Positions 3,627 through 19,709 of a stretch of 64,000 nucleotides of DNA are shown here, in pieces. The DNA is taken from NCBI RefSeq assembly GCF_014652455.1, contig NZ_BMYV01000002.1, positions 186,001 through 250,000 of the forward strand, read 5' to 3'. The notes below the pieces were generated by a model, which saw only the letters and a program-made list of their open reading frames with translations, was not told the origin of the DNA and searched no databases. The first letter of the stretch is position 1. Every line of letters begins with the position of its first letter. Origin of the DNA: Litorimonas cladophorae. Lineage in GTDB: Bacteria > Pseudomonadota > Alphaproteobacteria > Caulobacterales > Maricaulaceae. Position numbers and translations under genes: made by a program.

Positions 3627-5444
3627 TTAACGCCGCCCGCCATCATCAAACAATTCCGCCAGCTTTTCTGTCATCACCCCGCCGAGCTGTTCGACATCCA
3701 TGATGGTGACGGCACGTTTGTACCAGCGGGTGACGTCATGACCGATGCCGATGGCGACGAGTTCGACCTCTGAGCGGTTTTCGATTTTGTCGATCATCAC
3801 GCGCAAATGACTTTCGAGGAGGCCGGATTTGTTCTGGCTTTGCGTGGCATCATCTACCGGTGCGCCGTCAGAAATAACCATCAGGATACGGCGCTGTTCG
3901 GGCCGCGCCATCAGGCGGCGATAGGCCCAGTCTAGGGCTTCGCCATCAATGTTCTCTTTCAACAGACCTTCGCGCATCATCAGGCCGAGGTTTCGTTTCG
4001 CGCGACGCCACGGCATGTCGGCGGCCTTATACACGATATGGCGCAGATCGTTTAGGCGCCCGGGACGCGGAGGTTTGCCCGCCGCCATCCAATCTTGGAA
4101 ACTCTTGCCGCCTTTCCACGCGCGTGTCGTAAAGCCGAGGATTTCGGCTTTCACGCCGCAACGTTCCAACGTCCGCGCCATAATATCGGCGGTGACGGCG
4201 GCGACCATAATCGGCCGCCCACGCATAGACCCTGAATTATCAATCAAGATCGTGACGACCGTATCGCGGAAGTCGGTTTCTTTTTCTTCCTTGAACGTCA
4301 ACGCTGACATCGGGTCGGTGATCACACGGGTCAGGCGCGCCGTGTCGAGCATCCCTTCCTCAAGTTCAAAGGTCCAAGAGCGTTGTTGTTGGGCCAGCAG
4401 GCGACGTTGCAAGCGGTTGGCCAGACGTGAAATCGCCCCTGAAAGGCCTTGCATGTGACCATCTAAATAGCCGCGCAGACGTTCCAGCTCTTCAGTATCG
4501 CACAGGTCTTCGGCCTTTATGACTTCATCATGCGCCGTGGAATAGACCGTGTAAGGATCGGGCATATTGGTCGGCTGCGGACGTTGCGGGTTGGCGTCGG
4601 GGGATTGTTCTGAATCATCCTGCTCGCCATCAATATTTTCCGCATCGACCATATCCTGCGGTTCGGAGTTTTCGTCTTCAATCGCGTCGGCGTCAGAAAC
4701 TTCGGTTTGCCCGGGTTGGTCTTCTTGGTCGTCCTCTGAGCTTTGATCATTCTGCTGATCATCTTCGTTCTCTTGGGACTCGTCGTCTTGGTTGTCTTCT
4801 TCTTCGGAATTGGCGCGTTCATCGGCCATGTCGAAATCGGCGATTAAATCTTGGACGAATTTTCCGAAAGTATCTTGGTCGTCGACCGCGGTTTTCAGAT
4901 CGTCAAAGCGACCTGCCGCTTTTAACATGATCTCTTCGCGCCACGCACCCATGATACCATTGGTGGACTTTGGCAGTTTGCGTCCTGTCAGTTGTTCGCG
5001 CGCGAAAAGGCCCACGGCCTCGGCAAAGCTTGTGTCGTCCTTGGCGATATCGGGTTTATCAAATCCGCGTTTCAAAGCGCGCGCATCCAGCGCCGCCATC
5101 AGATTATCGCCCAATCCGGATAAATGCCGTCCGCCGAGCGCTTCGACGCGGGCTTGCTCCATCGCTTCGAACACCTGACGCGCAGGGCCCGATTGGGGCA
5201 TATTGCCAGAATGAATATCTTTGTCATGAAGGGCGAGCCGCAAGGCCAGAGCGTCCGCTTCGCCCCGCGCTTTGGCGATCAGACGCGGCTTTGGTTTAGG
5301 CGGCAGCGATGGCAACATGACTTGATCGCGCACGATACCGGCGACATCTCCACCAAAGGAAATCTCTAACTCGGGCTCACCTGCAATGGCTTTGGTGGCC
5401 GCCCCTAGGGCGCGCTTAAAATTGTCAATCGGCGTAGAAGTCAT
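3627..5444 (-). CDS. cobT: CobT, aerobic cobaltochelatase subunit
   Basis: A 605-aa subunit of the CobN-CobS-CobT complex, which inserts cobalt into hydrogenobyrinic a,c-diamide in the aerobic cobalamin pathway. CobT and CobS form the chaperone-like AAA+ part. The C-terminal VWA domain carries a MIDAS motif (LIDNSGSM, Asp near residue 401) with the downstream [10 protein letters not shown]. The very acidic linker (about residues 205-281, runs of Glu/Asp/Gln) is typical of CobT. cobN is not in the window and cobS lies 2.2 kb upstream on the same strand, separated by an oppositely oriented lipase gene. The start ATG follows a clear gap and gives the usual N-terminus. Confidence 0.93.
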
Positions 5445-5634: not shown

Positions 5635-7470
5635 ATGCAAACCCAAATTAATTCGTCTGTGAAAGACGTAGACATTTTTTCACGTTTAAAAATAACATCC
5701 AAAAAACTGCGACATGGCCTTCTCGCTGTGTCGACGCTCGCGATTTTGAGTGCCTGCACGACCGAAACCAAACCCAAAACCGACGTTGTAAAAGACGACA
5801 CGCTCACGGCAACAAATGCGAACAAGGATATCTATGTCGCTTTCGCGGGCGGCGGATGGCGCGCCCATACGGGGCACACGGCTTGGATGGTGGGGCTATT
5901 GGATAATGATCCAGATACGCCACCAATCGCGGCGCAACATATGAGCTTGGATGAAGCATTTACGAATGTGTCGGCGATCTCGTCCAATTCGGGCGGCAGT
6001 TGGTTTAATGTCATGCTATCTTACTCTGACAGTTTCAGAGCGGGTCTGGAAAAGCCTGCCGCCGCAACGAAATATCTGACGGATCCGTCGGCCTATTACA
6101 TCAATGAGAAAACGCTGTTTAATACGCTGTCAGGCGAGTCTCTGTCTTTGCTGTGCAGCGTGGACAATGAATTTTCGAACCTGCTCGCCATTGCCTGCAT
6201 GACCGATTTGAATTGGGATAATTTAATTGAAGATATTGTTTTTGGCCCCTTGTCCATGTCGAACGATCTGGCTGGAACCAGCTTGAACGGTAAGCAGGCT
6301 TGGACCGACCGTAAAACTATTTCGTTGGCCGCGACGGCGCTGACGGGGGACGTGGTTTTGGGTGAAAATGGATTTCTCAGCGGACACGAAAAATTCTATT
6401 ACGATGCGCCAGATTTAGGGGCCCTCAACATTGTTCCCGTGACCTTCGGGAGCGCAGCCGAGGCCAATGTGACGGCACCGAAGTTTTTCTCGGGCGGCAC
6501 AGGGTCCTTCACCCTGAGCTACGGAAAAACAGGCGACATCATCACGCAAGAGGAACCTAATAATTTGCGCGGAGTCTATGCTGACAGCATCAATGTGATC
6601 CATGCAGCTGCTGGCTCTAGCGCCGCGATTGGATTTCTGTCCAGTGACACCATTAACGCCAAAAACGCGGCTGCTCTCAAACTGCCATCAGGGGTTATTT
6701 GGGATGCGTCCTATGAAGCTGACGATCTGTCGGTCTTCGTCAATCTACCTGATCCGAATGGGGCGTCAAAAGCTGTTACCCGCGCGGCATCGCCAAGGGC
6801 GGATATTAATCACAATGCAAAAAACCGCATTATCAAAATCGCCGATGGCGGCGCGTTGGATAATTCAGGGGTCGCCCATTCGGTGATGCTCCACCAAGCC
6901 AATTATAGGTCATCTGTGCCCTTCGAAATTGTGGCTTTTGACAATGTGCAGAAAACTTATTCTTATGCGCCAACCCGTGTGGGAAACAGCGCGACGCCTG
7001 TCGCGCTCACGCAAGACATCGGCATCGATCTCGCTTTTTTGTTTGGCTATGGCTATACCCCCATCGCGGGCACCAATGGCCAAGACAGCGGCATGTGCAT
7101 GGAAGACTATTGCGTCACGACCCAAACCAATACAGTCAGCCAGCAAATATTCAATTCGGCGGGATTGAACGCTCCGACGCTTTGGCGATGGGCCTCAACG
7201 CAGACTGGGACGTCCCAACCGTGCGAGTTGATTTACACGCCCTATGCCGTGCAAACGGTCGCAAATGACATGATGGGGATCAAAGGGGGCTATTCAGGAA
7301 CGCTGCACAGCTTCACCGCCAATTGTCCATCTGCTGAGACGGCCCCTCTCAAAGCGGGTCATTGGGCCGCCTATGAAGATATGTACGCGGCCATTCAAAC
7401 GGGGTTGCAAGCGGAGAATAGCAAAGGCGTGAACTACCTCCGCACCGCGTTCAAACTGCCGACGCCTTAG
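5635..7470 (+). CDS. Secreted lipoprotein with cPLA2/patatin-like lipase domain
   Basis: This 611-aa protein has a signal peptide with a lipobox (AILSAC, Cys41) after an unusually long n-region, so it is probably an outer-membrane lipoprotein. The catalytic fold is suggested by AGGGWRAH (71-78, oxyanion-hole type), SNSGGSW (118-123, nucleophile Ser119) and ADGGALDNSG (catalytic Asp about 404). This is the Ser-Asp dyad layout of cytosolic phospholipase A2/lysophospholipase and patatin-like enzymes. The expected activity is acyl-ester hydrolysis of (lyso)phospholipids; substrate and localisation are inferred. It is preceded by a good AAAGGGG site and stands alone on the plus strand between cobS and cobT, so it is unlikely to share their function. 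Confidence 0.75.
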   Translation: MQTQINSSVKDVDIFSRLKITSKKLRHGLLAVSTLAILSACTTETKPKTDVVKDDTLTATNANKDIYVAFAGGGWRAHTGHTAWMVGLLDNDPDTPPIAAQHMSLDEAFTNVSAISSNSGGSWFNVMLSYSDSFRAGLEKPAAATKYLTDPSAYYINEKTLFNTLSGESLSLLCSVDNEFSNLLAIACMTDLNWDNLIEDIVFGPLSMSNDLAGTSLNGKQAWTDRKTISLAATALTGDVVLGENGFLSGHEKFYYDAPDLGALNIVPVTFGSAAEANVTAPKFFSGGTGSFTLSYGKTGDIITQEEPNNLRGVYADSINVIHAAAGSSAAIGFLSSDTINAKNAAALKLPSGVIWDASYEADDLSVFVNLPDPNGASKAVTRAASPRADINHNAKNRIIKIADGGALDNSGVAHSVMLHQANYRSSVPFEIVAFDNVQKTYSYAPTRVGNSATPVALTQDIGIDLAFLFGYGYTPIAGTNGQDSGMCMEDYCVTTQTNTVSQQIFNSAGLNAPTLWRWASTQTGTSQPCELIYTPYAVQTVANDMMGIKGGYSGTLHSFTANCPSAETAPLKAGHWAAYEDMYAAIQTGLQAENSKGVNYLRTAFKLPTP

Positions 7471-7621: not shown

Positions 7622-8608
7622 CTAATCAAAGACAGCCGTCACAGCGCTCTCTTCCAAATCGCTTCCGAATGCACGTTGGAAGAATTCGCTGATAATTGGA
7701 CGTTCGAGTTCGTCGCATTTGTTCAGGAAGGTCAGGCGGAAGGCCTGTGCGATGTCGCCATCAAAAATGCGTGTGTTTTCTGTCCAGTTCATGACAGTTC
7801 GAGGTGACATGACGGTGGAAATATCACCAGCGACGAAACTCTTGCGCGTCATATCGGCGACGCGGACCATGCTCGCGATGATATCGCGACCTTCGGGCGT
7901 GTCGTAATCTGGGCTTTTGGCAAGAACGATTTTTTCTTCTTCGTCATGGGCCAGATAGTTAAGCTGGCAGACGATTGACCAACGGTCCATCTGGCCTTGG
8001 TTGATCTGTTGGGTTCCGTGATACAGACCTGTTGTATCGCCGAGGCCGACCGTGTTCGTCGTCGCGAAGATACGGAAGAACGGATGCGGCGTGATGACTT
8101 TGTTCTGGTCGAGCAAGGTCAGGCGCCCTTGCGCCTCAAGCACGCGTTGGATCACGAACATCACATCGGGGCGGCCCGCATCATATTCGTCAAAAGTCAG
8201 CGCAACAGGGTTTTGCAACGCCCAAGGCAAAAGGCCTTCGCGGAATTCTGTGATCTGCTGTCCGTCTTTGATAACAATCGCGTCCTTGCCGATCAAATCC
8301 ATGCGCGAGACATGGCTGTCGAGGTTGATCCGCACCAAGGGCCAGTTCAACCGCGCGGCAACTTGTTCAATATGGGTTGATTTACCCGTACCGTGATAAC
8401 CCTGGATCATCACGCGACGGTCAAAGGCAAAACCCGCACAGATCGCTTGGGTTGTACGGTCGTCAAAACGGTAAGCTTCATCAATCGCAGGCACATAATC
8501 GGAGCGTTTGGAAAAGGCGGGTAGCTCCATATCAAAATCAACGTCAAAGACCTCGCGAGCCGACACTGTGGTGTCCGGCTGGAACAGGGGGAACTTATCG
8601 TCAGTCAT
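7622..8608 (-). CDS. cobS: CobS, aerobic cobaltochelatase AAA+ subunit
   Basis: A 328-aa MoxR-type AAA+ ATPase that, with CobT, drives cobalt insertion by CobN in aerobic cobalamin synthesis. Walker A is GYHGTGKST (about residues 71-79) and Walker B is ALTFDEYD (about 133-140). The N-terminus [20 protein letters not shown] and the C-terminal segment ([14 protein letters not shown]) are typical of CobS. Length matches the family. Order on the minus strand is J-domain gene, cobS, then cobT, the usual alphaproteobacterial neighbourhood, but here a lipase gene on the other strand intervenes before cobT. Confidence 0.95.
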
Positions 8609-9781: not shown

Positions 9782-11746
9782 ATGATGAGACGTGTTTTAT
9801 TGGCCTCCACCCTTTTAGCTCTCGGAGCCCTGACCACGGGCTGCGCTTCGACCGCTCAAGGTATGAAGGCCTCTGTCCTGACCACCTCTGTCCCGACGGA
9901 AGACTTGCGCGGTGAAATTCCCGAAGGGGGTGTATTGGCTGTCATCCGCTATCCCGCCATTGTCGAAGCCGATGCCAAAGATATTTACCATCGCGCCTAT
10001 GCCAGTCGGGCGATTGGGGGTCAGACGGGCAGGGGCGTGACCAATACGATTGAAACGGTTGCTGTCGCAGATAGCACGATCGTCAAATCTAACTACTTTG
10101 CGCTCTCGCTTTATAAGGAGCTCGCCGCGCGCTTGCCTGAACATTCTGTCCTGCTCTCGCCCCATGCCATCAAATTAGGCCCTGGCGGAGAGCTGACCTC
10201 GGAACCGATTACCGCTGCGGAGGATTTGCCCTCTGTCGTTTCTATTGATTTTGCGACGTATAGCTTTCCCGATAGCCGTAAGATGATGGGCGATGTTCCG
10301 CTCACCTTCGGGGATTTAGTTACGCCGCTGATCACTGTGCGCACAGATCATCGCGCGTCTGCGCCGACGCAGGGCTTGTTGCTCGCCTCACGTCCGCTTG
10401 TTTCTCGTGCGGCCGCAGAAGGTCGCGAGGCAGCATTAGAAACAATTACTGCCATGCAGTCAGGCGATTTATCGCCCGTAATTCCTGAGCTAGATTTTGT
10501 GTCTTATATCACCAATGACACACCGCAGGCCGTGTCGGTTGAAGGCTTGTCTATCCGCTCGGATACAAATTCAACGATGGTCTTGCCCGTCGAAAAAATC
10601 CGCATTCCTACGACCGAAATGGCACTGCTGCGCGGGGCCAGCGATGGCACGGTTGATCCCATTGACGACATTTACACGGAGGCGCTGTCCAATCGCATCA
10701 TCGCATTGATCAATGGAATCGACCCCGACAAAGCCATCATGATGGGCAAGGCAGCGTCTATTGCAGATTTCGACCCCAGCCTCGCCGCACTAACATTTGT
10801 TGGTTCCGATGACGATGATTATGCCGCCCGCGCCGCTTACGCCTCACGCCTTTTGGACGCGCAGCGGAAGTATTTATCTGTTCAATCCCTGCGTATTTTC
10901 GATGGAATTCACAATGGCGAGTTGGGCGCGCAGGTCCGTGATATGATCGCCGCTGAACATCAGGTTTTGGAAAAGCGGCGCACCTTGGCGCGTCAGCAGA
11001 ACCTTGCGACTGTGCTGGCGATTGCTAGCGTTGCGGCTGGCGCAGCGACAGCAGGTGGCAGTACAAACTGTCGCGGTGCCAGCAGCCAACGCGAATATGA
11101 TGATTGTATGCGGCGTCAAACCGCCCGTACCGCCGCCAGTTCGGCCATGGTGCAGGCGGGTATCTTTGCTGCGACTGAAGCTTATTCCAAGGCGCAGCTC
11201 TCACAGCAAGTTGGGACCAATTACCTCAATTCAATTGTGCCGGCTCTAGAGCAGCAAACAACCGTCACAGTGGATTTGCTGGATTCCAATGAGACGATCA
11301 CGGCCATTCGCTATGAGGATTTACAGGCCAAATTGCAGTCGCTTTATAGTTCTCGCCAACGCGCCCTCGATACTGTCGCGACCCAATGTGCTTATGTTGG
11401 CGAAGACGGAACAAAGCGTGGCACTTGGATGGGCGTTTGTGAAAATGGATTAGCCAATGGGTCAGGGGCAGGCGTGTTGAAAACCGAAGCCGATGTCATG
11501 GAATATTACGGTTATGCCCGCGCGGGTCTCGCGGATGGTCCGGGCTTGATGATCCGTCATACGGCGCTGGGCAGCATCTCTTATGAGGGCAGTTTTGCGA
11601 AGGGACGCCCCGATGGAACCGTCCGCGTCAGCCAATCTGGTCGCGAAGATCAAACACGTATTTATGTCGATGGCATGGACCGTGGCGCGTCAACGCAAAC
11701 GGCGGCCTCACCTTTTGCCGGTTCAACGGGCGGGGCTGTTAACTGA
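9782..11746 (+). CDS. Large lipoprotein with C-terminal MORN-like repeats, first gene of the VWA/motor operon
   Basis: This 654-aa protein has a lipobox LTTGC (Cys21), so it is probably anchored in the outer membrane or the periplasmic face of the inner membrane. I recognise no family for residues 25-400. A small-residue-rich hydrophobic stretch (about 405-430) is followed by CRGASSQREYDDCMRR, whose two cysteines may pair. Residues about 535-630 hold MORN-like units (GTWMGVCENGLANGSGAG, GYARAGLADGPGLM, YEGSFAKGRPDGTVRV). It is the start of a run of eight genes; its TGA overlaps the next ATG (TGATG). An AAGGGGA site precedes the start. Function unknown; envelope placement is inferred. Confidence 0.8.
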   Translation: MMRRVLLASTLLALGALTTGCASTAQGMKASVLTTSVPTEDLRGEIPEGGVLAVIRYPAIVEADAKDIYHRAYASRAIGGQTGRGVTNTIETVAVADSTIVKSNYFALSLYKELAARLPEHSVLLSPHAIKLGPGGELTSEPITAAEDLPSVVSIDFATYSFPDSRKMMGDVPLTFGDLVTPLITVRTDHRASAPTQGLLLASRPLVSRAAAEGREAALETITAMQSGDLSPVIPELDFVSYITNDTPQAVSVEGLSIRSDTNSTMVLPVEKIRIPTTEMALLRGASDGTVDPIDDIYTEALSNRIIALINGIDPDKAIMMGKAASIADFDPSLAALTFVGSDDDDYAARAAYASRLLDAQRKYLSVQSLRIFDGIHNGELGAQVRDMIAAEHQVLEKRRTLARQQNLATVLAIASVAAGAATAGGSTNCRGASSQREYDDCMRRQTARTAASSAMVQAGIFAATEAYSKAQLSQQVGTNYLNSIVPALEQQTTVTVDLLDSNETITAIRYEDLQAKLQSLYSSRQRALDTVATQCAYVGEDGTKRGTWMGVCENGLANGSGAGVLKTEADVMEYYGYARAGLADGPGLMIRHTALGSISYEGSFAKGRPDGTVRVSQSGREDQTRIYVDGMDRGASTQTAASPFAGSTGGAVN

Positions 11747-12558
11747 TGTTGCGCACAGCCCTCATAAGTGCGGCTTTGCTGTTGCCGACATTTGCTTATG
11801 CAGGTGACGATAGCGCGACAGCAATTTCGTCTGTGCCCGTCGCGGCGCAGAATCAAGACCGCTGCATTGCGCAAATGTCGGATTTCCCAACGGATGACCC
11901 AACGGCGCGCTATCAGTTTTTCAGATTGGTCAGTGATGTTGGTTTCGGCGCAGATGTCGAAACACGTCAGCTGTTTAATCATTATGGTCAGCCAAGTGTC
12001 GAAATAGGGACCCCTGTTTTGTCAGTTATTGAAGACATCGCGAACCCCGTCCTACGTCAGGCCGCGCCTGAAATCGTGGTGGCGAGCATGAACCATCTCG
12101 TTGATTTTGCGCAAACCTGCGATGTCTATATAACCGGCCAAACAGAGAGTTTGACGGCGTTCGACCCGACACTTGCCAATCCAGAGTTAAATACTGCCAT
12201 TGCCGAAGACGCGCTTTTCTTGCGTCAAATTCTGTCCGAAAGCCTCTCCCGCCTTGGTGCCGATAGTGACCCCATTTGGGCGGGCGCGACGCGTGCATAT
12301 AGCCGAAGCCTCGTCACGCAACGCGATTCCGTCGAATTTGCGGCGTTCGAAAGTGAGATCGCCGAGCTGGAAACCTTATTCATGGATGATCTGGATGGAC
12401 GCTTGGCGCGGTCAAATGATGTTATAAATTCAGAAATGGACCGAGAAATTTTGGGCGACTCTGTGCAGTTGTCCAATGATATGAATGAAGCAGCGATGAA
12501 ACAAGCGCGCCAAGATCGTCTCTATCGCTTGCTGAGAATATTCGGCGGCGGACGCTAG
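11746..12558 (+). CDS. Secreted hypothetical protein, second gene of the VWA/motor operon
   Basis: A 270-aa protein with a clean signal peptide (LISAALLLPTFAYA, cut near residue 19) and no membrane segment afterwards, so it is periplasmic. The rest is predicted helical. Two cysteines (CIAQMSD, about 41, and QTCDVYI, about 125) could form a disulfide. I do not recognise a family. Its start codon overlaps the stop of the lipoprotein gene by one base and its stop is 6 bases before the first VWA gene, so it is almost certainly translated from the same message. It may be a structural or accessory part of the complex; that is inference from context. Confidence 0.7.
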   Translation: MLRTALISAALLLPTFAYAGDDSATAISSVPVAAQNQDRCIAQMSDFPTDDPTARYQFFRLVSDVGFGADVETRQLFNHYGQPSVEIGTPVLSVIEDIANPVLRQAAPEIVVASMNHLVDFAQTCDVYITGQTESLTAFDPTLANPELNTAIAEDALFLRQILSESLSRLGADSDPIWAGATRAYSRSLVTQRDSVEFAAFESEIAELETLFMDDLDGRLARSNDVINSEMDREILGDSVQLSNDMNEAAMKQARQDRLYRLLRIFGGGR

Positions 12559-12564
12559 GGTCAG

Positions 12565-13518
12565 ATGAAGTCTCGTCGGCGCAATATTGCCGTTTTTTCT
12601 ATCTCGGCGTTGGATTTATTTGCCGCAGCGCTGGGGGCCTTTATTCTCATCGTGCTGGTGCTCTTCCCCTATTATAAATTGGGCGGCACAGATGTATCGA
12701 TGGAAGAGCTTGAGGAGCAAGTCCGCAAGCGGCGTTTCGCGGCCGAAAGCGTTCGCACAGATATGTCCGTTATCCGCGCCTTACAAAGCGAAATTCGCTT
12801 GCTGGATAAGCAGTATCTCACAACGCAGACGGAAATGAGCGAGACAGAGGACAAGCTTGCCGAAGTGTTGAAGGCGATCACCGAAGTTGAAATTCCCGAT
12901 CCTCAACCCCAACCTGAGCCGATTCCCGATCCGATGCCGACGCCGCGCCCTGAACCACCAGAGCCGCCTCGTTCTATCAATCGCGGCGTCCCATTTTCTA
13001 TTTTGGGTCTGGCAACCGATAGGCGTGAAGTTGTCATCTTGGTCGATATGTCAGGGTCGATGCAGGCGCATAAGTCCAAAGTCACGCAAGCTCTGAACGA
13101 GATTATCTCGCAGATGAAACCCGATAACCGCTTTGCGATCATCGGGTATCGAGGTGGGCCAACCTATGACAGCTTTCCCAGCAATGGCCAATTGGTGCGG
13201 GCCGATGCGGCAACATTGGCGCGTGCGCGAGATTTCGTAGATCGTCTGCCCAGTCGTTTTGGTGGTGGCACACCAACCCAAAGTGCGCTCATCCGAACGC
13301 TCAATTTAAAGCCCGAAGCTATTATTCTGATCAGTGACGGTGCGCCAGATGATGGACAACCCGGTGCGATTATTCGCAATGTTACCAACCGAAATCGCGG
13401 TCGCGCTGAGATTCATACCGTGGCTATTGGCGACTATACGTCAGACAAAAAACTGACGATTTTTTTGCAAGAGCTGGCCAATCGGAATCAGGGTGAATTT
13501 GTGGGGCGGTCCCGATGA
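12565..13518 (+). CDS. Single-TM VWA protein with intact MIDAS and an Asp in the TM segment
   Basis: A 317-aa protein. It has a short basic cytoplasmic end (MKSRRRN), one TM helix with an acidic residue near its start (SISALDLFAAALGAF, Asp17), a coiled coil (about 45-108), a Pro-rich linker (111-137) and a VWA domain (about 150-317). The VWA domain has a complete metal-ion-dependent adhesion site: DMSGS (161-165), Thr in GGGTPT (about 216) and Asp in ISDGAPDD (about 238). The Asp-bearing single TM resembles MotB/ExbD/TolR, which carry protons past a MotA/ExbB/TolQ partner; such a partner is encoded two genes downstream. It overlaps its paralogue by four bases (ATGA). The motor role is inferred. 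Confidence 0.8.
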   Translation: MKSRRRNIAVFSISALDLFAAALGAFILIVLVLFPYYKLGGTDVSMEELEEQVRKRRFAAESVRTDMSVIRALQSEIRLLDKQYLTTQTEMSETEDKLAEVLKAITEVEIPDPQPQPEPIPDPMPTPRPEPPEPPRSINRGVPFSILGLATDRREVVILVDMSGSMQAHKSKVTQALNEIISQMKPDNRFAIIGYRGGPTYDSFPSNGQLVRADAATLARARDFVDRLPSRFGGGTPTQSALIRTLNLKPEAIILISDGAPDDGQPGAIIRNVTNRNRGRAEIHTVAIGDYTSDKKLTIFLQELANRNQGEFVGRSR

Positions 13519-14498
13519 AGCGCCGCTCTGATCGACAAATCGAAGTCTTCTCTATGTCGGCGATTGATCTCTTCGCGGCGGCGATGGGGGCCTTCGCGCT
13601 GATCGCAATTATCTTGCTGCCCTATTACCAGAATGAGTTGCGTGAAAAGACACCTGATAATGCGATTGCGGAGCTGCTGCGCGCAGCTGAAGAGAGCTCC
13701 GTTGAAACGGAAGAGAAGAAAAAAGCGTTGGAAATTAAGCGCTCGGCGATGGCGCAAAATGTCTCTGATGTGAAATCCGAGGCACAAGAGTTGCTGAATA
13801 AGTTGCGCGCCGCTGAACAAAGTCTGCTCGAGAAGCAGGCTGCCGCAACCCCGCCACCGGCTGTTGTTGTTCCTGAGCCGATTGAAGAAGACCCCGGGCC
13901 ATTGCCTGAACCGGCGACGGTTTCTTTCCGCTTTCTCGGCATGAATACCACGGCCGATGACATTGTTGTCGCATTGGATATGAGCCGTTGCATGGGCGGT
14001 CACGAGGCCTCGGTGAATAAAGCCGTGGAGCGCGTCATACTTTCCCTACAGGATAATCACGCCGTCAAAGTCTTAGGCTTTCAGCAAACCGATGCGGGAC
14101 CACGTATCCGTCAATGGCCGGCCAATGGACGCCTTCGCCAAATTAATGCGGGCGGCACAAAGACGGGGGCGATTGATTTTGCCAAAGGTCTAACGCGGCA
14201 ATTTGGGGGCTCAGCCTCTATGTTGGACGCGTTTGACAAAATGCTATCTGGGCCTGGCGAAGCGATTTTCTTGATCAGTGACGGCTTGCCAAATCCACGG
14301 GCCAATGATGGCTTGTCGCCAAACCGTTTGATCTCTGAGATCACCCGCAGGAACGCCGGACGGAAAGAAATCCACGCGGTTGTTGTCGGCAATTATTTCG
14401 ATTTTCGCGGAACTGTTGAATTCATGGAAAACCTTGCGGCGAAGAACAATGGACAATTTATGGCCTTGGCTTCGACTTCCGCTGGCGTCTGTGATTAA
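13515..14498 (+). CDS. Paralogous single-TM VWA protein with degenerate MIDAS
   Basis: A 327-aa paralogue of the preceding protein with the same plan: MKRRSDRQIEVFSMSAIDLFAAAMGAF (Asp18 in the TM), a charged coiled coil (about 45-110), a Pro-rich linker and a VWA domain. The metal site is altered. DMSRC (155-159) has Cys in place of the last Ser, and the Thr loop reads FGGSASM, although ISDGLPNP is kept. This looks like a tandem duplication followed by specialisation into an active/inactive pair that could form a heterodimer on the channel subunit; MotB and ExbD act as dimers. Start overlaps the previous stop (ATGA). The partner role is inferred. Confidence 0.8.
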   Translation: MKRRSDRQIEVFSMSAIDLFAAAMGAFALIAIILLPYYQNELREKTPDNAIAELLRAAEESSVETEEKKKALEIKRSAMAQNVSDVKSEAQELLNKLRAAEQSLLEKQAAATPPPAVVVPEPIEEDPGPLPEPATVSFRFLGMNTTADDIVVALDMSRCMGGHEASVNKAVERVILSLQDNHAVKVLGFQQTDAGPRIRQWPANGRLRQINAGGTKTGAIDFAKGLTRQFGGSASMLDAFDKMLSGPGEAIFLISDGLPNPRANDGLSPNRLISEITRRNAGRKEIHAVVVGNYFDFRGTVEFMENLAAKNNGQFMALASTSAGVCD

Positions 14499-14522
14499 AG
14501 ATTGGGATTAGAAAGAAACCTC

Positions 14523-15311
14523 ATGAATAATACCTCTCTCATTCGTCGACTATTTGTCTTCCTTGTCGCCCTTGTCGGCGCGATTGTTACCATCGGAATT
14601 ATCCGCGTGGCCGCATCTCCTGCGCTGCAAGAAATTCTCCTCGATGCGGATGCGGATTTCTGGCCGTTCACGGTTCAGAATGTGATGTGGGTCGCATTAT
14701 TCATTGGTTTCGGGGAAATTTTCTTACGTTGGTCAGCTGCCAGTGATGAAGAAAACCAGCTCAAGCGCGGCTACCTTCCGACAGATGGGCGCGCGCTGGA
14801 TGGCGAAACATTAGGCCGGATCAAGACAGGTATTACCGACCGCCGCTTTGGTCGCGCCGCTTTCCTGCCGCGCATGATCGAGCGAACTATTGATCAATAC
14901 CGCATGAGCGGGAATGAAGACCAAGCCATCAGCGTTCTAAATTCCTCGCTGGAACTTTACATGCACGAAATTGATTTGCGCTATTCCATGTTGCGCTACC
15001 TCACATGGTTGATCCCGTCTCTTGGATTTATCGGGACCGTGATGGGGATTATGTTCGCGCTGCAATATGCGGGTGTTCCCGCCAATGCCGAAGCTGATGA
15101 TTTCCTCTATCAAGTCACCTCACGTTTGGGCGTGGCCTTCACGACAACCTTGCTTGCGTTGATCATGTCCGCCGTACTGGTGCTCATCCAATCGCTTGTG
15201 CAGAGCAAAGAAGAACGCGCCCTAAATGAAGCCGGCCAATATTGTCTCGATAATTTAATTCTGCGTTTGGGCACTGGGCCAGATGCCAATACGAATACTT
15301 CGTCTGAATGA
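14523..15311 (+). CDS. MotA/TolQ/ExbB-family proton channel subunit
   Basis: A 262-aa protein with four predicted TM helices (about residues 8-28, 50-70, 160-182, 200-222). The last two carry the family signature: WLIPSLGFIGTVMGIMFAL, and LGVAFTTTLLALIMSAVLVL with its TTT. Proteins of this family form pentamers around two MotB/ExbD/TolR-type single-TM partners and convert ion flow into mechanical work in the envelope. Here the neighbouring single-TM proteins with TM aspartates are the natural partners. The ATG at 14523 is preferred over a TTG at 14502 because of a GAAAGAAA site just upstream. Its stop overlaps the next start (ATGA). Confidence 0.85.
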   Translation: MNNTSLIRRLFVFLVALVGAIVTIGIIRVAASPALQEILLDADADFWPFTVQNVMWVALFIGFGEIFLRWSAASDEENQLKRGYLPTDGRALDGETLGRIKTGITDRRFGRAAFLPRMIERTIDQYRMSGNEDQAISVLNSSLELYMHEIDLRYSMLRYLTWLIPSLGFIGTVMGIMFALQYAGVPANAEADDFLYQVTSRLGVAFTTTLLALIMSAVLVLIQSLVQSKEERALNEAGQYCLDNLILRLGTGPDANTNTSSE

Positions 15312-15799
15312 AACGGCCTCCGATACAAAAGCTGAAGCATGCGAGTTATTTCTGGCCAGGGTTTATGCTGATTAGCTTAACTTATGCCGCATTCATGGCG
15401 GTCCCGACGAGAGAGGGTAATGACGTCGGCGCTGGGAACCCAGAGATATTTGTCGTTGCAGGATTACTGGGGGCTGTTTTTTGCTTTGCAATGATGTTGT
15501 TTTCTCCGTCTCTCAAGCTGTCCCCATCGGGCTTCGCGTTTAGGTATCCGCTGAAATCCTATTCCCATGCGTGGTTAGATGTTTCTGAATTTCGCGTCAG
15601 TAAATTCACAAAAGGGCGTCCCAGCGTGTCCTTTGACCTTTTGTCTGACACGCATGAGAAGACGAAAACTTTTGACGCCACTTTTGGATACGCGGCCGCT
15701 GATTTGGCAAAACTCTTTAATACTTACCGCGCTTATGCTCTCTTTGAAGAGTCAGAGAAAAATTACGCGATATTCGCGGATCAGGACGTTACATCATGA
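15308..15799 (+). CDS. Two-TM hypothetical membrane protein, possibly PH-like
   Basis: A 163-aa protein with two TM helices near the N-terminus (about 15-32 and 45-66) followed by a beta-rich domain. LKLSPSGFAFRYPLKSYSHA and WLDVSEFRVSKF resemble bacterial PH-like or STM3941-type membrane proteins, with the soluble domain on the cytoplasmic side. No catalytic residue stands out. It is translationally coupled at both ends: its ATG overlaps the stop of the channel gene and its stop overlaps the next ATG (both ATGA). Coupling this tight suggests it belongs to the same complex, possibly as a cytoplasmic regulator. Function not known. Confidence 0.65.
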   Translation: MKRPPIQKLKHASYFWPGFMLISLTYAAFMAVPTREGNDVGAGNPEIFVVAGLLGAVFCFAMMLFSPSLKLSPSGFAFRYPLKSYSHAWLDVSEFRVSKFTKGRPSVSFDLLSDTHEKTKTFDATFGYAAADLAKLFNTYRAYALFEESEKNYAIFADQDVTS

Positions 15800-17355
15800 C
15801 TAACCCCAATGACGGCTGGCAAGCCCCGCATGAACGTGATCAATTTGCGGTTCGCGAAGAACGCGCGCCTTGGCTGAAATACTCTGTTGGTCTCCTTGCC
15901 CTCCTTCTCGTGGGCGGCGGGGCAATTTGGCTGGCCTCAAAAGTGGTTGTCGCCGATGACGTGCCGACGATCGAACGGACGGATAATTCGGATGTAAAGC
16001 CTTCCGAGGTTGAACAACCCCAAGCCCCGAAATCCGCCGATGATCTAGCGTGGGTGAAAGCGCTCGAAACTGACACGGTCGAAGGTTATCGTGATTATCT
16101 GGCCGCGTTTCCGAATGGTCGCCATGTCGAAGACGCGCAGCGCTTGCTCAATGAATTTGACGAAAACGCGTGGCAATTGGCCGAGGAACGCGACACGGTT
16201 CAAGGTTATGAAGACTATCTCGCGAGCTGGCCAGAAGGCCTACACGCGACCGAGGCCCGCGACCGGATTGCGAAAATAAAGGCCGAAGAAGAGGCGCGTC
16301 GCAAAAACGCAGCCGAAGCCGCACGCCAAGAAGCGGCTGCGTGGAAAGCGGCGGCTCAAGCCAATACAATTCCATCTTATGAGGGCTATCTCTCTAAATT
16401 TTCGTCAGGCAAAAACGCGCCAGAAGCGCAAGCCCGCATTGATCGCCTGCGCGCCAGCGCCGCTGATGAAGGTGCATGGACCGCGGCCAAGGCCGTCGAT
16501 AGCGCCGATGCCTATCAGCAATATCTCACTAGCTTCCCACAAGGCGCGCATGTCGCCGAGGCCATTGCGCGAATTGAAACTTTGCGTCCAGGCCCAGGAA
16601 AAACTTTCAAAGATTGCGCCGCTTGTCCGACGATGGTGACACTCCCTGCGGGGACAGCCGAACTTGGCGCGGCGGAAACGGACGGCAACGCGAAACCGAA
16701 TGAAAAGCCAGCACGGCCTGTTACTTTTACCAATCTCTTTGCGATTGGCGTGACCGAAGTCACCTTTGATCAATATGGCGCATGCGTCAGCGCGGGCGGC
16801 TGTAAATCCATGCCGTCCGACAATGGCTGGGGGCAGGGTAGCCGCCCCGTCATTAATGTCAGTTGGTCCGATGCCGTTGCCTATGCACAGTGGCTGTCCA
16901 CCACCACGGGTAAACGTTATGGCCTGCCCTCTGATGCGCAGTGGGAATATGCGGCACGTGGCGGCGATACAGGGCTCTATCCGGGCGGCTCTGCCAAAGC
17001 GCTCTGCGCCTTCGCCAACGGCGCCGCCAAGGAGTCAGAACTCCCTTGGGCGAATGAGGCCTGTACGGATTTGGCGGGAGATCGCACTCTGCCTGCGGGG
17101 TCGTTGTCCAAGAATAAATTCGGCGTCGCGGATATGTTGGGGAATGTGGGAGAATGGGTGTTGGATTGTAACACGCTGAACCTGCGGGATGCGCCAGTTG
17201 ATGGCTCCGCCGATGCGCGGGGGTCTTGTTCGCAACGGATTGTGCGCGGGGGATCGTGGTTCTCTGGGCCCGATGATCTGCGCTATTCGGCCCGAGCGGT
17301 TCAACGTCGCGGCGATACCAATGATTTCACAGGCTTTCGGGTCGTGCGGAACTAG
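15796..17355 (+). CDS. Membrane-anchored FGE-sulfatase (SUMF1)-fold protein with four ~45-aa repeats
   Basis: A 519-aa protein with a cytoplasmic N-terminus, one TM helix (about 30-50) and four repeats of the W-x-x-A...Y-x-x-YL-x-x-(F/W)P-x-G-x-H-x-x-x-A type (about 84-260, third degenerate, helical, TPR-like). A formylglycine-generating-enzyme-like domain follows (about 275-519), with VTEVTFDQYGACV, VINVSWSDAVAYAQWLS, YGLPSDAQWEYAARGG, MLGNVGEWVLDC and RIVRGGSWFSGPDDLRYSAR. True FGE enzymes have two catalytic cysteines just after RGGSW; here that stretch has Ser/Gly/Asp, so the domain is probably a binding module. The whole C-terminal part would be periplasmic. It may be the ligand-facing part of the operon's complex (inference). 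Confidence 0.85.
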   Translation: MTNPNDGWQAPHERDQFAVREERAPWLKYSVGLLALLLVGGGAIWLASKVVVADDVPTIERTDNSDVKPSEVEQPQAPKSADDLAWVKALETDTVEGYRDYLAAFPNGRHVEDAQRLLNEFDENAWQLAEERDTVQGYEDYLASWPEGLHATEARDRIAKIKAEEEARRKNAAEAARQEAAAWKAAAQANTIPSYEGYLSKFSSGKNAPEAQARIDRLRASAADEGAWTAAKAVDSADAYQQYLTSFPQGAHVAEAIARIETLRPGPGKTFKDCAACPTMVTLPAGTAELGAAETDGNAKPNEKPARPVTFTNLFAIGVTEVTFDQYGACVSAGGCKSMPSDNGWGQGSRPVINVSWSDAVAYAQWLSTTTGKRYGLPSDAQWEYAARGGDTGLYPGGSAKALCAFANGAAKESELPWANEACTDLAGDRTLPAGSLSKNKFGVADMLGNVGEWVLDCNTLNLRDAPVDGSADARGSCSQRIVRGGSWFSGPDDLRYSARAVQRRGDTNDFTGFRVVRN

Positions 17356-17412
17356 CGTGAGATAAACGCGCCATTCATCCCACTTTCAGGCCATTTGTGC
17401 TAGGCGGAGGAC

Positions 17413-18420
17413 ATGATGATACGTGCGTTGACAGTTTCTCTCCTCTTGGCCGTCATGGCTGCGCCAGCCTATGCGCAGGATTCTGACCCAGAAACACCGC
17501 CTGCGACGAACCCGCAAACACGCCAGACAGATCAGTCCGAAGACGATTACCGTCGCTCGCAACGCCGCCGTGATACGGGCGATATTTTTGAAGATATCGG
17601 TATCAATCAAGGTAGCACAGGCAGTGGCGGCATATTAGGCCGCGAGGTCAAGGCGATTGATCGCTTGGACCAAGAATCCCGTCGTCACCTGAATAAACAA
17701 CGCGCCAAAGCGCTGGCTGAAGCCGAACCCGGCGAACCGATTGATGCGGCTTATGAGCCATCCGAAGCGGCCAAAACAGATGAATATACCGCGCGGCAGG
17801 AAGCCAATGCGTGGAAAGAAATGATGGAAGAGGCCAATAGCGGTCTTTCAGAGGCGACAGGCCAAAGTGGTGGGCAAGGTGGCGGCCAAGGCCAGCCCGC
17901 GGGCGATCCAGGTCAATCGCCTGACCAATCCGCGTCTGACCAAGCCGCATCTGGTCAATCTGGTTCTGGACCATCAGGCACGGGTCAAGCTGGCCAAGAA
18001 GGCGACTCGCAAACGCGTCCAAATAGCTCGCCGTTACGCGGTGGGTCGGCCAGTTCTGCGTCCTCTATTTTAGACCGCATTAAAGGTCGTGGCGGCAGCG
18101 CACCACAGTCGGGAACACCGCCAAGTTCATCCGAAAATCCACAAGGTCAATCCCAAGCGGGCCAACCCCAAGCGGCTGAAACGCAAACGGATACGAAGGC
18201 GAATATGGAGGCTGCAGCACAAGCTGCGGCAGAAGCCGATGCACGGAACCAAGCGCAAATCGCGGCTCCAGATGCCGCCGCGCCGAATGCGGCCGCCGAA
18301 GCCGCCGCACATCATCAAACTATGAGCCCGCTTGAACGCCTCAAAAACGATCCCATCGAACGTGATGATACAGGCGGACGAACCAGCGCGTCTGATTATT
18401 TAAATCGCAAGAAAGACTAA
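17413..18420 (+). CDS. Secreted low-complexity protein, last gene of the VWA/motor operon
   Basis: A 335-aa protein with a signal peptide (SLLLAVMAAPAYA, cut near residue 21). A short ordered-looking region (about 50-140) is followed by a long Gln/Gly/Ser/Ala/Pro-rich tract (about 145-300) that is almost certainly disordered. No lipobox, no membrane helix, no recognised domain. The composition resembles periplasm-spanning or surface-exposed flexible linkers. It starts 57 bases after the FGE-fold gene with an AGGCGGAGGAC site just upstream, so it could be part of the operon or have its own promoter. The convergent glsB-like gene begins 46 bases on, marking the operon's end. Confidence 0.65.
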   Translation: MMIRALTVSLLLAVMAAPAYAQDSDPETPPATNPQTRQTDQSEDDYRRSQRRRDTGDIFEDIGINQGSTGSGGILGREVKAIDRLDQESRRHLNKQRAKALAEAEPGEPIDAAYEPSEAAKTDEYTARQEANAWKEMMEEANSGLSEATGQSGGQGGGQGQPAGDPGQSPDQSASDQAASGQSGSGPSGTGQAGQEGDSQTRPNSSPLRGGSASSASSILDRIKGRGGSAPQSGTPPSSSENPQGQSQAGQPQAAETQTDTKANMEAAAQAAAEADARNQAQIAAPDAAAPNAAAEAAAHHQTMSPLERLKNDPIERDDTGGRTSASDYLNRKKD

Positions 18421-18848: not shown

Positions 18849-19613
18849 TTAGGCTGTGAACAACGGGATAACTAGGATAATGAGAAACGCCAAACGTCCC
18901 ATTGAAACTTGCTTAAATGAGAACTTTTTTTCTCTTCTCTTTTTGAGAGATGAGTTCATGCAATAGCGCACTGCTGCTAGGCTAGTGAAGAAGGTGATAG
19001 CTAGGAAAGCCTCTACCCACTCTAAGTTCAGGATACTTGGCATGCAAAATCTTGGCAATTTATAGAGGTCATAAAGACCCAGCGCGACGATGGAAATAAC
19101 GAAAGAAAACCCCGCTACAACGCCTATCAACGGATGGCGGTTCCCATGTACCGCGATGCTAAGACGTGGGTTTGGGGTATGGATTTTAATGTTTTCAAAA
19201 CCGAAGACTTCTTGTTGTATGCGTTCTAATTTTTCGATGACTTCATTTTCTGAAGCATTCAATTGTGCGCAAATGAATTTATCACCGTTTATGACGATGT
19301 CTTGCCAATCAACTTTTTCGTCCTTTAGCCAAGATCGTATTTTAGCGTAATAGGGCTTGAGTTCAGGACAACGTTTGAAAAGAAGTTGAAACGGGTCTTC
19401 ATAGGTACCGCGGGATACATACCGCAGTTGCATGAACTCTAACCCACCCTCCGAGCGATAGGTAAAGCGTTCATCTTCTGGCCGTCTTGAAATCAATAAG
19501 GCAACCGAATCCGCTAGCGTGAATTTACCTTCCGTTGTTTTGGATTTTTCAATGTCTTCAACGCGGTAAACTTTAATGGGTTCTCGTTTTTCTATTTCAC
19601 CTTTGTCGTTCAT
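18849..19613 (-). CDS. Hypothetical protein with soluble N-terminal domain and three C-terminal TM helices
   Basis: A 254-aa protein with a mixed alpha/beta N-terminal region (about 1-150), then hydrophobic helices at about 158-180, 198-218 and 235-253, with a basic stretch (KKRREKKFSFK) between the last two. I do not recognise a family. An open frame extends upstream to 19697, but that part runs through the acnA terminator hairpin, so the ATG at 19613 is taken as the start even though no strong ribosome-binding site precedes it. Lower GC than its neighbours hints at a different history. It is expressed either by readthrough from acnA or from a promoter I could not identify. Confidence 0.55.
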   Translation of the reverse strand: MNDKGEIEKREPIKVYRVEDIEKSKTTEGKFTLADSVALLISRRPEDERFTYRSEGGLEFMQLRYVSRGTYEDPFQLLFKRCPELKPYYAKIRSWLKDEKVDWQDIVINGDKFICAQLNASENEVIEKLERIQQEVFGFENIKIHTPNPRLSIAVHGNRHPLIGVVAGFSFVISIVALGLYDLYKLPRFCMPSILNLEWVEAFLAITFFTSLAAVRYCMNSSLKKRREKKFSFKQVSMGRLAFLIILVIPLFTA

Positions 19614-19650
19614 TTCGACGGTATGCGTGAAATTCCTTAATTCCCAAATA

Positions 19651-19688
19651 AAAAGGCCGCCTCGTGCAAATGCACCAAGCGGCCTTTT
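19651..19688 (-). terminator. Rho-independent terminator of acnA
   Basis: AAAAGGCCGC (minus strand, 19688-19679) pairs perfectly with GCGGCCTTTT (19660-19651). An inner GTGCA/TGCAC stem extends the hairpin. It begins 22 bases past the acnA stop codon. The inverted repeat with A and T tails could work in either direction. Confidence 0.9.
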
Positions 19689-19709
19689 CTTTATCATATG
19701 TTCCGAAGC

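What the first reader, a model, noticed from the sequence alone, without database searches (positions are those of the whole stretch)
9782..18420. Eight-gene operon: ion-channel subunit plus two TM-Asp VWA proteins, lipoprotein and FGE-fold receptor - candidate undescribed envelope machine
Seen: consecutive plus-strand genes with overlapping or near-touching starts and stops (TGATG, ATGA three times). They encode a MORN-like lipoprotein, a periplasmic protein, two VWA proteins each with one TM helix containing Asp, a four-TM MotA/TolQ/ExbB protein, a two-TM protein, a membrane-anchored FGE-fold protein, and a disordered secreted protein. Known: MotAB, ExbBD, TolQR and Zorya ZorAB pair a channel of this family with single-TM, Asp-bearing partners whose periplasmic domain does work on peptidoglycan or a receptor. 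Inferred: here the periplasmic effector is VWA, making a new ion-driven machine with an outer-membrane lipoprotein and a ligand-binding module. It has no helicase or nuclease, so it does not look like Zorya defence.
Basis: partly seen in the sequence, partly recalled or inferred. Interest (0 to 1): 0.85.

Follow-up and report, generated by a model that had tools for sequence, protein, structure and literature searches.

The report
Proton-motor operon with von Willebrand axle
A conserved set of bacterial genes appears to encode a membrane motor of the TolQ type whose moving part ends in two different von Willebrand-type domains, linked to an outer-membrane lipoprotein and a receptor-like protein that, in relatives, carries a protein kinase; the motor idea was published in 2025, but the kinase link and the uneven axle look new.

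Summary
The operon is real: eight plus-strand genes, ATGA/TGATG overlaps; core genes in the same order in 38 of 38 related alphaproteobacterial loci (29 with all seven, nine incomplete). The channel model resembles TolQ (Z 15.3) and both pore threonines are invariant in 30 of 30 channels. Every ExbD/TolR hit in this genome lies beside another ExbB/TolQ, so the two VWA proteins, each with a transmembrane Asp, are the best partners. This motor core is not undescribed: Williams-Jones et al. 2025 (MBE) predicted "TPH-vWA" motors on the same logic. Not found in print: (1) the tandem VWAs are unequal; in 51 of 51 pairs the first keeps the metal-site SxS and TPT, the second lacks both; (2) gammaproteobacterial relatives carry the FGE-fold protein fused to a Ser/Thr kinase with FHA proteins, and their genomes mostly hold the same MORN lipoprotein; (3) the window's genome has no FHA and no kinase over cut-off. 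Against: two of 13 gamma loci have VWAs and kinase::FGE but no channel gene. Best reading: an ion-driven TolQ-like motor with an asymmetric VWA axle, working between inner membrane and an OM lipoprotein. Role unknown. New variant of a known kind.

The parts
9782..11746 (+). Predicted outer-membrane lipoprotein, 654 aa; lipobox Cys21 (9842-9844), C-terminal MORN-type beta sheet (about residues 530-640)
   Evidence: Cys21 invariant 14/14; residues 541-640 pLDDT about 74-89, rest of model poor
11746..12558 (+). Secreted periplasmic protein, 270 aa, family of its own; adjacent to the lipoprotein in the gammaproteobacterial loci where it was detected
   Evidence: (no Pfam)
12565..13518 (+). VWA1: TM helix with Asp17 (codon 12613-12615), presumed coiled coil, Pro-rich linker, VWA domain with intact MIDAS motif (DMSGSM 13045-13062)
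13515..14498 (+). VWA2: TM helix with Asp18 (codon 13566-13568), VWA-like domain with degenerate MIDAS motif (DMSRCM 13977-13994; GGSAS in place of GGTPT)
14523..15311 (+). TolQ/ExbB-type channel subunit, 262 aa (ORF open from TTG 14502), with an extra N-terminal helix; pore Thr172 (15036-15038) and Thr209 (15147-15149)
15308..15799 (+). Small membrane protein, 163 aa, optional accessory
   Evidence: 2 of 38 relatives
15796..17355 (+). Membrane-anchored FGE-fold protein: short N-terminal tail, TM about 34-52, helical repeats (by eye), FGE domain (16624-17349) without the first catalytic Cys (Ser490)
17413..18420 (+). Secreted, low-complexity (Gln/Gly/Ser/Ala-rich) protein, 335 aa; the N-terminal part is the better conserved

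Best explanation
The operon encodes a proton- (or sodium-) driven inner-membrane motor of the TolQ/ExbB kind. Five copies of the channel protein surround two single transmembrane helices, one from VWA1 and one from VWA2, each bringing the ion-carrying Asp (stoichiometry and pairing inferred). In place of the TolR/ExbD domain, the axle continues as a presumed coiled coil and a proline-rich arm long enough in principle to cross the periplasm (inferred), ending in VWA domains. VWA1 can bind a ligand through its metal site; VWA2 has lost that motif in every pair seen in this subfamily and is probably a structural or regulatory partner, so the axle is asymmetric. The likely periplasmic clients are the MORN lipoprotein at the outer membrane and the non-catalytic FGE-fold receptor. 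In Gammaproteobacteria the receptor carries a Ser/Thr kinase with FHA partners, so there the state of the machine is reported to, or controlled from, the cytoplasm; the alphaproteobacterial form in the window works without that kinase. Shown: gene order, families, folds of single parts, residues, co-occurrence. Inferred: complex, rotation or pulling, client identity, and the physiological role (my guess: sensing or maintaining contact between the membranes).
For: PF01618 over cut-off; AF2 model pLDDT 87 whose best structural matches are TolQ Z 15.3, then ExbB 13.9. Thr172 and Thr209 align with TolQ T145 and T178 (counted) and are invariant in 30/30 channels. TM Asp in 51/51 VWA2 and 50/54 VWA1; the other four VWA1 rows were cut short by my ORF finder or a contig end, and the three of them that recur in A1 show the Asp. 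The genome's TolQ-TolR and ExbB-ExbB-ExbD-ExbD sets lie together on contig C1; this channel, on C2, has no ExbD. In 51 of 51 pairs the first VWA has SxS and TPT and the second lacks both. Order kept in 38/38 alpha loci. Lipoprotein in 12 of 16 genomes of the gamma, desulfobacterial and Thiomargarita set, downstream and inverted in several. Kinase::FGE fusions in L074, L070 and L079; FHA in L074, L067, L079 and L190; PP2C in L079; kinase Lys, catalytic-loop Asp and DFG in 5 of 5 fusions examined. Independent published prediction of the same motor logic.
Against: No complex could be modelled here. Two of 13 gamma loci (L069, L070) have the VWA pair, kinase::FGE, lipoprotein and 270-aa protein but no channel gene in six-frame search; the genome of L070 has a second locus with a channel (L125), and that of L069 a second VWA pair at a contig start whose surroundings I did not see. 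Foldseek gives no E below 0.001; ZorA and MotA/PomA rows (Z 9-11) are no better than unrelated helical bundles in the same list, such as a designed nanopore at 11.2. Sequence similarity to solved TolQ is weak (E 0.011). Four of 16 genomes lack the lipoprotein, among them G071, which has the VWA pair. Loci with a single VWA exist (L079, L190, L191), so a heterodimer is not needed in all relatives, and in the sister family both VWAs keep DxSxS in four of four pairs. A further sub-threshold MotA_ExbB hit in the genome (C2:57377, 21.2 bits) was not examined. No phenotype is known.
Confidence: 0.68

Rival explanations
1. Primarily a signalling receptor: the channel and VWA pair form a force- or PMF-sensing input for the FGE-kinase/FHA pathway, analogous to the threonine phosphorylation pathway (TagQRST-PpkA-Fha-PppA) that senses outer-membrane damage for T6SS; the window's kinase-free form is a reduced version.
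For: Kinase::FGE fusion and FHA in the loci, PP2C in L079; the published TPP has an OM lipoprotein, a periplasmic protein, an IM kinase, Fha and PppA (PMC11881912, passages), and PpkA has a VWA domain (PMC1262709, passages). One gamma copy (L070) lies roughly 8 to 33 kb from T6SS genes on the same contig: a TssC-type hit, VgrG, a ClpV-like AAA protein, T6SS FHA and TssK/VasE.
Against: The window's genome has no kinase over cut-off, no FHA and no TssC. TssC in 6 of 14 gamma/desulfobacterial genomes (one of them a contig-end fragment) and 0 of 5 alpha genomes, so T6SS is not the general output; and the T6SS-adjacent copy is one without a channel gene. 13 of 15 alpha relatives have no kinase and 14 of 15 no FHA over cut-off.
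Confidence: 0.35
2. Not a motor: the VWA proteins are a passive trans-periplasmic tether or scaffold, and the channel serves a TolR/ExbD-type partner encoded elsewhere.
For: Channel sequence is far from solved TolQ/ExbB (E 0.011 at best); two loci have VWA pairs without a channel gene; VWA domains are common adhesion modules (general knowledge).
Against: All three ExbD hits of the genome sit next to other ExbB/TolQ genes; Asp and pore Thr are conserved; VWA2 is followed by the channel in all 37 alpha loci whose DNA reaches it.
Confidence: 0.16
3. A Zorya-like anti-phage system.
For: Weak PADLOC matches: ZorA2 1.9e-4 for the channel, ZorB1 0.027 for VWA2.
Against: No helicase or nuclease gene among the eight; channel 262 aa, so no long ZorA-type tail; no other credible defence match in the operon; kept in the same order in 16 of 60 related genomes including most of the genus sample, unusual for defence islands (general knowledge).
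Confidence: 0.03

Closest known systems
TPH-vWA motors (Williams-Jones et al. 2025, Mol Biol Evol msaf138, PMC12204202; section 8 and passages read)
   Same: TolQ-like channel without TolR/ExbD, mostly heterologous pairs of TM-Asp vWA proteins, Thr ring, PMF-driven axle idea
   Different: [quoted passage not shown] the main text has no occurrence of kinase, formylglycine, sulfatase or MIDAS. The window's subfamily has another TM motif (SALDLFAAALGAF against SFLDIMSCGFGA in the sister loci), a channel 22-28% identical to six sister channels, a degenerate VWA2 metal motif and the MORN lipoprotein. That the sister loci are the Idiomarina type is my inference.
TolQR / ExbBD
   Same: Channel fold and pore threonines; single-TM Asp partner
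   Different: Extra N-terminal helix in the channel; partner ends in VWA, not the TolR/ExbD domain; no TolA/TonB, TolB or Pal match among the eight proteins
AglRQS (gliding, Myxococcus)
   Same: Two different single-TM partners per channel (recalled)
   Different: Agl partners are TolR-like, not VWA (recalled)
GldKLM / PorKLM (T9SS)
   Same: An FGE-fold envelope protein (GldK) beside an ion-driven motor (motor part recalled); FGE matches GldK 1e-22 and PorK/GldK structures 4e-16
   Different: Closest FGE homolog is PvdO; no GldL/GldM match in the operon; GldK is a lipoprotein, here a TM anchor
T6SS threonine phosphorylation pathway
   Same: OM lipoprotein, periplasmic protein, kinase and FHA logic in the gamma form
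   Different: No motor in the TPP as described; here the kinase is fused to FGE and the VWA is on the axle; the window form lacks the kinase

Membership tests
MotA/TolQ/ExbB 5:2 motors | Channel subunit of PF01618 with TolQ/ExbB fold | tested here: met
   44.6 bits against 22.9; TolQ Z 15.3, rmsd 3.1 over 208 residues; Foldseek E only about 1e-3
MotA/TolQ/ExbB 5:2 motors | Two pore threonines (TolQ T145, T178; essentiality recalled) | tested here: met
   T172 and T209 aligned with them, invariant in 30/30
MotA/TolQ/ExbB 5:2 motors | Single-TM partner with a TM Asp | tested here: met
   51/51 VWA2 and 50/54 VWA1, the other four rows truncated before the helix; essentiality untested
MotA/TolQ/ExbB 5:2 motors | Pentamer around a dimer, ion flux, rotation | not testable with these tools
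   No complex prediction or assay available
TPH-vWA motors (2025) | tolQ homolog with paired TM-vWA genes and no tolR/exbD beside it | tested here: met
TPH-vWA motors (2025) | Asp ringed by Thr in a modelled complex | not testable with these tools
   Residues present; complex not modelled
Zorya | ZorA with long cytoplasmic tail, ZorB with peptidoglycan-binding domain, ZorC/D or ZorE effector (recalled) | tested here: not met
   Channel 262 aa; partners end in VWA; no effector match in the operon
T6SS threonine phosphorylation pathway | Ser/Thr kinase, FHA protein and a T6SS in the genome | tested here: not met
   Window genome: no kinase over cut-off, no FHA, no TssC. In the gamma form kinase and FHA are present, T6SS only in some
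Catalytic formylglycine-generating enzyme | Catalytic cysteine pair (recalled) | tested here: not met
   First Cys of human FGE aligns with Ser490, invariant Ser in 12 of 12 rows
T9SS GldKLMN | GldL and GldM beside GldK | tested here: inconclusive
   No GldL/GldM match among the eight proteins in NCBIfam; remote homology not excluded

The most novel reading that the evidence does not exclude
A TolQ-type rotary motor with an obligately heterodimeric axle, one VWA metal-active and one metal-dead, that is physically and genetically coupled to a Ser/Thr kinase, FHA and phosphatase pathway through an FGE-fold receptor: a motor used to sense or set the mechanical state of the cell envelope and report it by phosphorylation. 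Alphaproteobacteria such as the window's have kept or inherited the machine without the kinase.
Probability: 0.33. Interest if true: 0.85.

Novelty: new variant of a known kind. Interest (0 to 1): 0.6.

Why it matters
Known 5:2 motors are thought to pull or turn envelope parts; a branch wired to kinase and FHA proteins would join such motors to bacterial phospho-signalling. The unequal VWA pair gives a clean test of whether the two helices of an axle must differ. A cultured marine bacterium, Algimonas arctica KCTC 32513, carries the seven core genes in order (L059), so the published prediction can be tested there.

Tried and rejected
Zorya and other defence: PADLOC matches only weak. Catalytic FGE: rejected on the Cys-to-Ser change. 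A universal metal-active/metal-dead rule: rejected, because in the sister family both VWAs keep DxSxS in the four pairs where both passed the filter (L176, L184, L185, L194). Kinase elsewhere in the window's genome: none over cut-off; one sub-threshold hit of 21.6 bits. T6SS as general output: rejected. Lipoprotein full model: poor (pLDDT 51), only the MORN end usable; its N-terminal fold is left open (a FlgT row, Z 6.2, is not interpreted). Direction of kinase gain or loss: the channel tree groups gamma and alpha with weak support (87/69), the three single-VWA rows have long branches that may meet falsely, and three sister FGE proteins scanned show no kinase, so it is left unresolved. An FHA domain at the N-terminus of the L194 FGE protein, suspected by eye, was not confirmed. 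Viral collections were not searched. Papers: the listings of searches show no report of the kinase-FGE-motor combination; the library holds open-licence papers only. Distribution: the genome-contig scan used two short peptide patterns, so distant members are missed; two surveys sampled 369 genomes (class of the L074 genome) and 398 (phylum of the window), and clear members (E < 1e-80) besides the query genomes were 5 and 0.

It showed that L069 and L070 have no channel gene, that L178, L181 and L183, which had printed nothing because my ORF filter hid them, are sister loci with FGE, channel and two VWAs, and which VWA1 rows were truncated. For the channel-less loci I lowered the main confidence from 0.70 to 0.68 and the novel case from 0.35 to 0.33, and raised the no-motor rival by 0.01.


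Full report
1. Observation. Stop/start overlaps are TGATG once and ATGA three times. Pfam gives VWA for genes 3 and 4 (gene 4 below cut-off), MotA_ExbB for gene 5 and FGE-sulfatase for gene 7; genes 1, 2, 6 and 8 have no credible family. NCBIfam places the FGE protein nearest PvdO (1e-47) and then GldK (1e-22), none over its cut-off. The lipoprotein's C-terminal sheet is MORN-like by sequence and fold.

2. Conservation. VWA1 matched 20 of 60 related genomes, the window's own included; in 16 of these a second, full-length match lies directly behind it, and the other four are weak partial hits. tblastn of the 15 other loci found the order lipoprotein, 270-aa protein, VWA1, VWA2, channel, (small TM protein), FGE, disordered protein as far as the contigs reached. 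A scan of one genome per species for 84,980 species returned 57 loci: 38 alphaproteobacterial (records named Hellea, Robiginitomaculum, Algimonas, Hyphomonadaceae or 'Caulobacterales', among them Algimonas arctica KCTC 32513), 13 gammaproteobacterial or taken as such (titles Lysobacterales, Xanthomonadales, Chromatiales, Gammaproteobacteria and one 'Proteobacteria'), one Desulfococcaceae, two Thiomargarita, and three weak VWA-only hits. In the 38 alpha loci, order and strand are kept in 38, with all seven core genes in 29; the small TM protein is in 2; 32 of 38 show neither bolA/dnaJ nor acnA of the window's flanks in the DNA held. Order therefore seems held by the operon more than by general synteny.

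3. The gammaproteobacterial form. In L122/L123, L126 and L128 the order, reading from VWA1, is VWA1, VWA2, one or two small genes, channel, a secreted/TM protein, the FGE protein, the disordered protein, with the lipoprotein and the 270-aa protein downstream and inverted. FHA was confirmed by Pfam for two small genes between VWA2 and channel in L067 and for the secreted/TM protein in L074; the small gene in L074 gave no match, and those of L126 and L128 were not scanned. Pfam on L074: Pkinase 4.8e-37 and FGE 8.9e-46 in one 809-aa protein; L070: Pkinase 2.4e-31 and FGE 4.4e-49. In five fusions examined (L074, L067, L126, L128, L079) the kinase Lys, the catalytic-loop Asp (HxD) and DFG are present, with a hydrophobic segment after the kinase. 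The Desulfococcaceae locus L079 has kinase::PEGA::FGE, three FHA, two PP2C, the channel and one VWA protein. A divergent secreted CHAT/TPR gene stands before VWA1 in L074; ORFs of similar size and place occur in L067, L126 and L128. The lipoprotein profile hits 12 of 16 genomes of this set, with one or two full-length copies each.

4. Loci without a channel. In L069 and L070, VWA1, VWA2, the FGE protein, the 270-aa protein and the lipoprotein are present but no channel is found by tblastn or by six-frame profile search. The L070 genome has a second locus with channel, VWA pair, FGE, lipoprotein and 270-aa protein (L125). The L069 genome has a second VWA pair near a contig start, not examined further. 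Either the copies share a channel, or a VWA/kinase::FGE unit can work without one.

5. Kinase-free in the window. G000 has no FHA and one sub-threshold kinase hit. Of 15 alpha relatives, 14 lack FHA over cut-off and 13 lack a kinase over cut-off. Whether the kinase was lost here or gained elsewhere is open.

6. The motor. The channel model (pLDDT 87) matches TolQ best (Z 15.3, rmsd 3.1, 208 aligned), then ExbB (13.9); ZorA (11.3) and PomA/MotA (9-10) follow but stand among unrelated helical bundles. The TolQ match starts at about residue 32, so the first helix is extra. Foldseek alone gives E about 1e-3 at best. T172 and T209 align with TolQ T145 and T178 and are invariant in 30 of 30 sequences including six of the distant sister family. 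In G000, TolQ (C1:167172) is beside TolR (C1:167710), and ExbB (C1:55622, 56229) beside ExbD (C1:56647, 57181); the names are by adjacency and family. The window's channel (C2:200871) has no ExbD; one more sub-threshold MotA_ExbB hit (C2:57377) was not examined.

7. The two VWAs differ in kind. In 51 of 51 pairs the first gene carries SxS at the metal-site positions and TPT in loop 2, and the second carries C, Y or F at the third position and no Thr in loop 2. Of 54 first-type rows 53 have DxSxS and one (L066) NxSxS; the grouping itself used SxS, so gene order and loop 2 are the independent evidence. The TM Asp is present in 51 of 51 VWA2 and 50 of 54 VWA1; the other four rows were cut short before the helix, and three of them show the Asp in A1. 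The split is shared by alpha and gamma loci. Relatives with one VWA exist: L079 and L191 with an intact motif, and L190, whose motif my pattern did not find. The Thiomargarita partner L129 has the same TM helix and a coiled coil but no VWA match.

8. A sister family. Channel hits of intermediate score (best E per genome about 1e-26 to 4e-15; 34 of 369 and 14 of 398 genomes) were examined around a subset. Ten loci (L176, L178, L179, L181, L183, L184, L185, L187, L188, L194) hold two tandem genes matching the VWA profile beside the channel, nine of them also an FGE gene, L179 being the exception. The TM motif is SFLDI..CGFGA or near it, and both VWAs keep DxSxS in the four pairs where both passed the filter. 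FGE with PEGA repeats was confirmed in L176, L184 and L194.

9. Prior art. Williams-Jones et al. 2025 (PMC12204202; section 8 read, passages) predict a family of TM-tethered vWA proteins that pair with TolQ homologs without TolR/ExbD, mostly in heterologous pairs, with Asp and Thr ring in AF3 models. Their main text has no hit for kinase, formylglycine, sulfatase or MIDAS. Kaur et al. 2020 (PMC7159879) treats vWA, FGS and FHA domains in other systems, without ExbB or MotA (passages). The TPP comparison rests on passages of PMC11881912 and PMC1262709; that TagR is FGE-like is recalled.

10. Mechanism. Shown: parts, order, residues, folds of single chains, co-occurrence. Inferred: a 5:1:1 motor; a VWA arm reaching the MORN lipoprotein (a presumed coiled coil of about 60 residues plus about 30 Pro-rich residues, roughly 19 nm by my arithmetic); the FGE protein as receptor; kinase coupling in gamma. 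The physiological role is not shown; envelope sensing or tethering is my guess.

Noticed in passing
window 3627-5444 and 7622-8608 (-): CobT and CobS cobaltochelatase subunits (both over the NCBIfam cut-off) separated by a 611-aa plus-strand lipoprotein-like ORF (5635-7470) without Pfam or NCBIfam match; CobT is itself a VWA-type protein (recalled) but belongs to another system.
   Followed up: partly
window 18849-19697 (-): 282-aa membrane protein with no family, between the operon and aconitase; no hit in the 15 relatives' loci.
   Followed up: no
L074 39-4899, L067 223-5426: DUF3450, ExbB-like, TonB-like and further genes form another energising cluster next to the gamma form (DUF3450, MotA_ExbB and TonB_C confirmed for three L074 genes).
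   Followed up: no
L074 5839-8961 (-): Secreted CHAT (caspase-like) protein with TPRs, divergent from VWA1; ORFs of similar size at the same place in L067, L126, L128, not scanned.
   Followed up: partly
L129 8383-10807 (Thiomargarita): Axle-like protein with the SALDLFAAAMGTF helix and coiled coil but no VWA match, next to a caspase-domain/Lcl_C protein: the periplasmic domain on this helix seems exchangeable.
   Followed up: partly
L069 and L070 (L204, L124): VWA pair plus kinase::FGE, lipoprotein and 270-aa protein without a channel gene; the L070 copy lies on the same contig as T6SS genes (L202/L203; T6SS FHA, TssK/VasE, ClpV-like AAA, VgrG).
   Followed up: partly
L176, L178, L179, L181, L183, L184, L185, L187, L188, L194: Sister operons with FGE protein (nine of ten), channel and two TM-VWA genes, probably the kind described in 2025.
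   Followed up: partly
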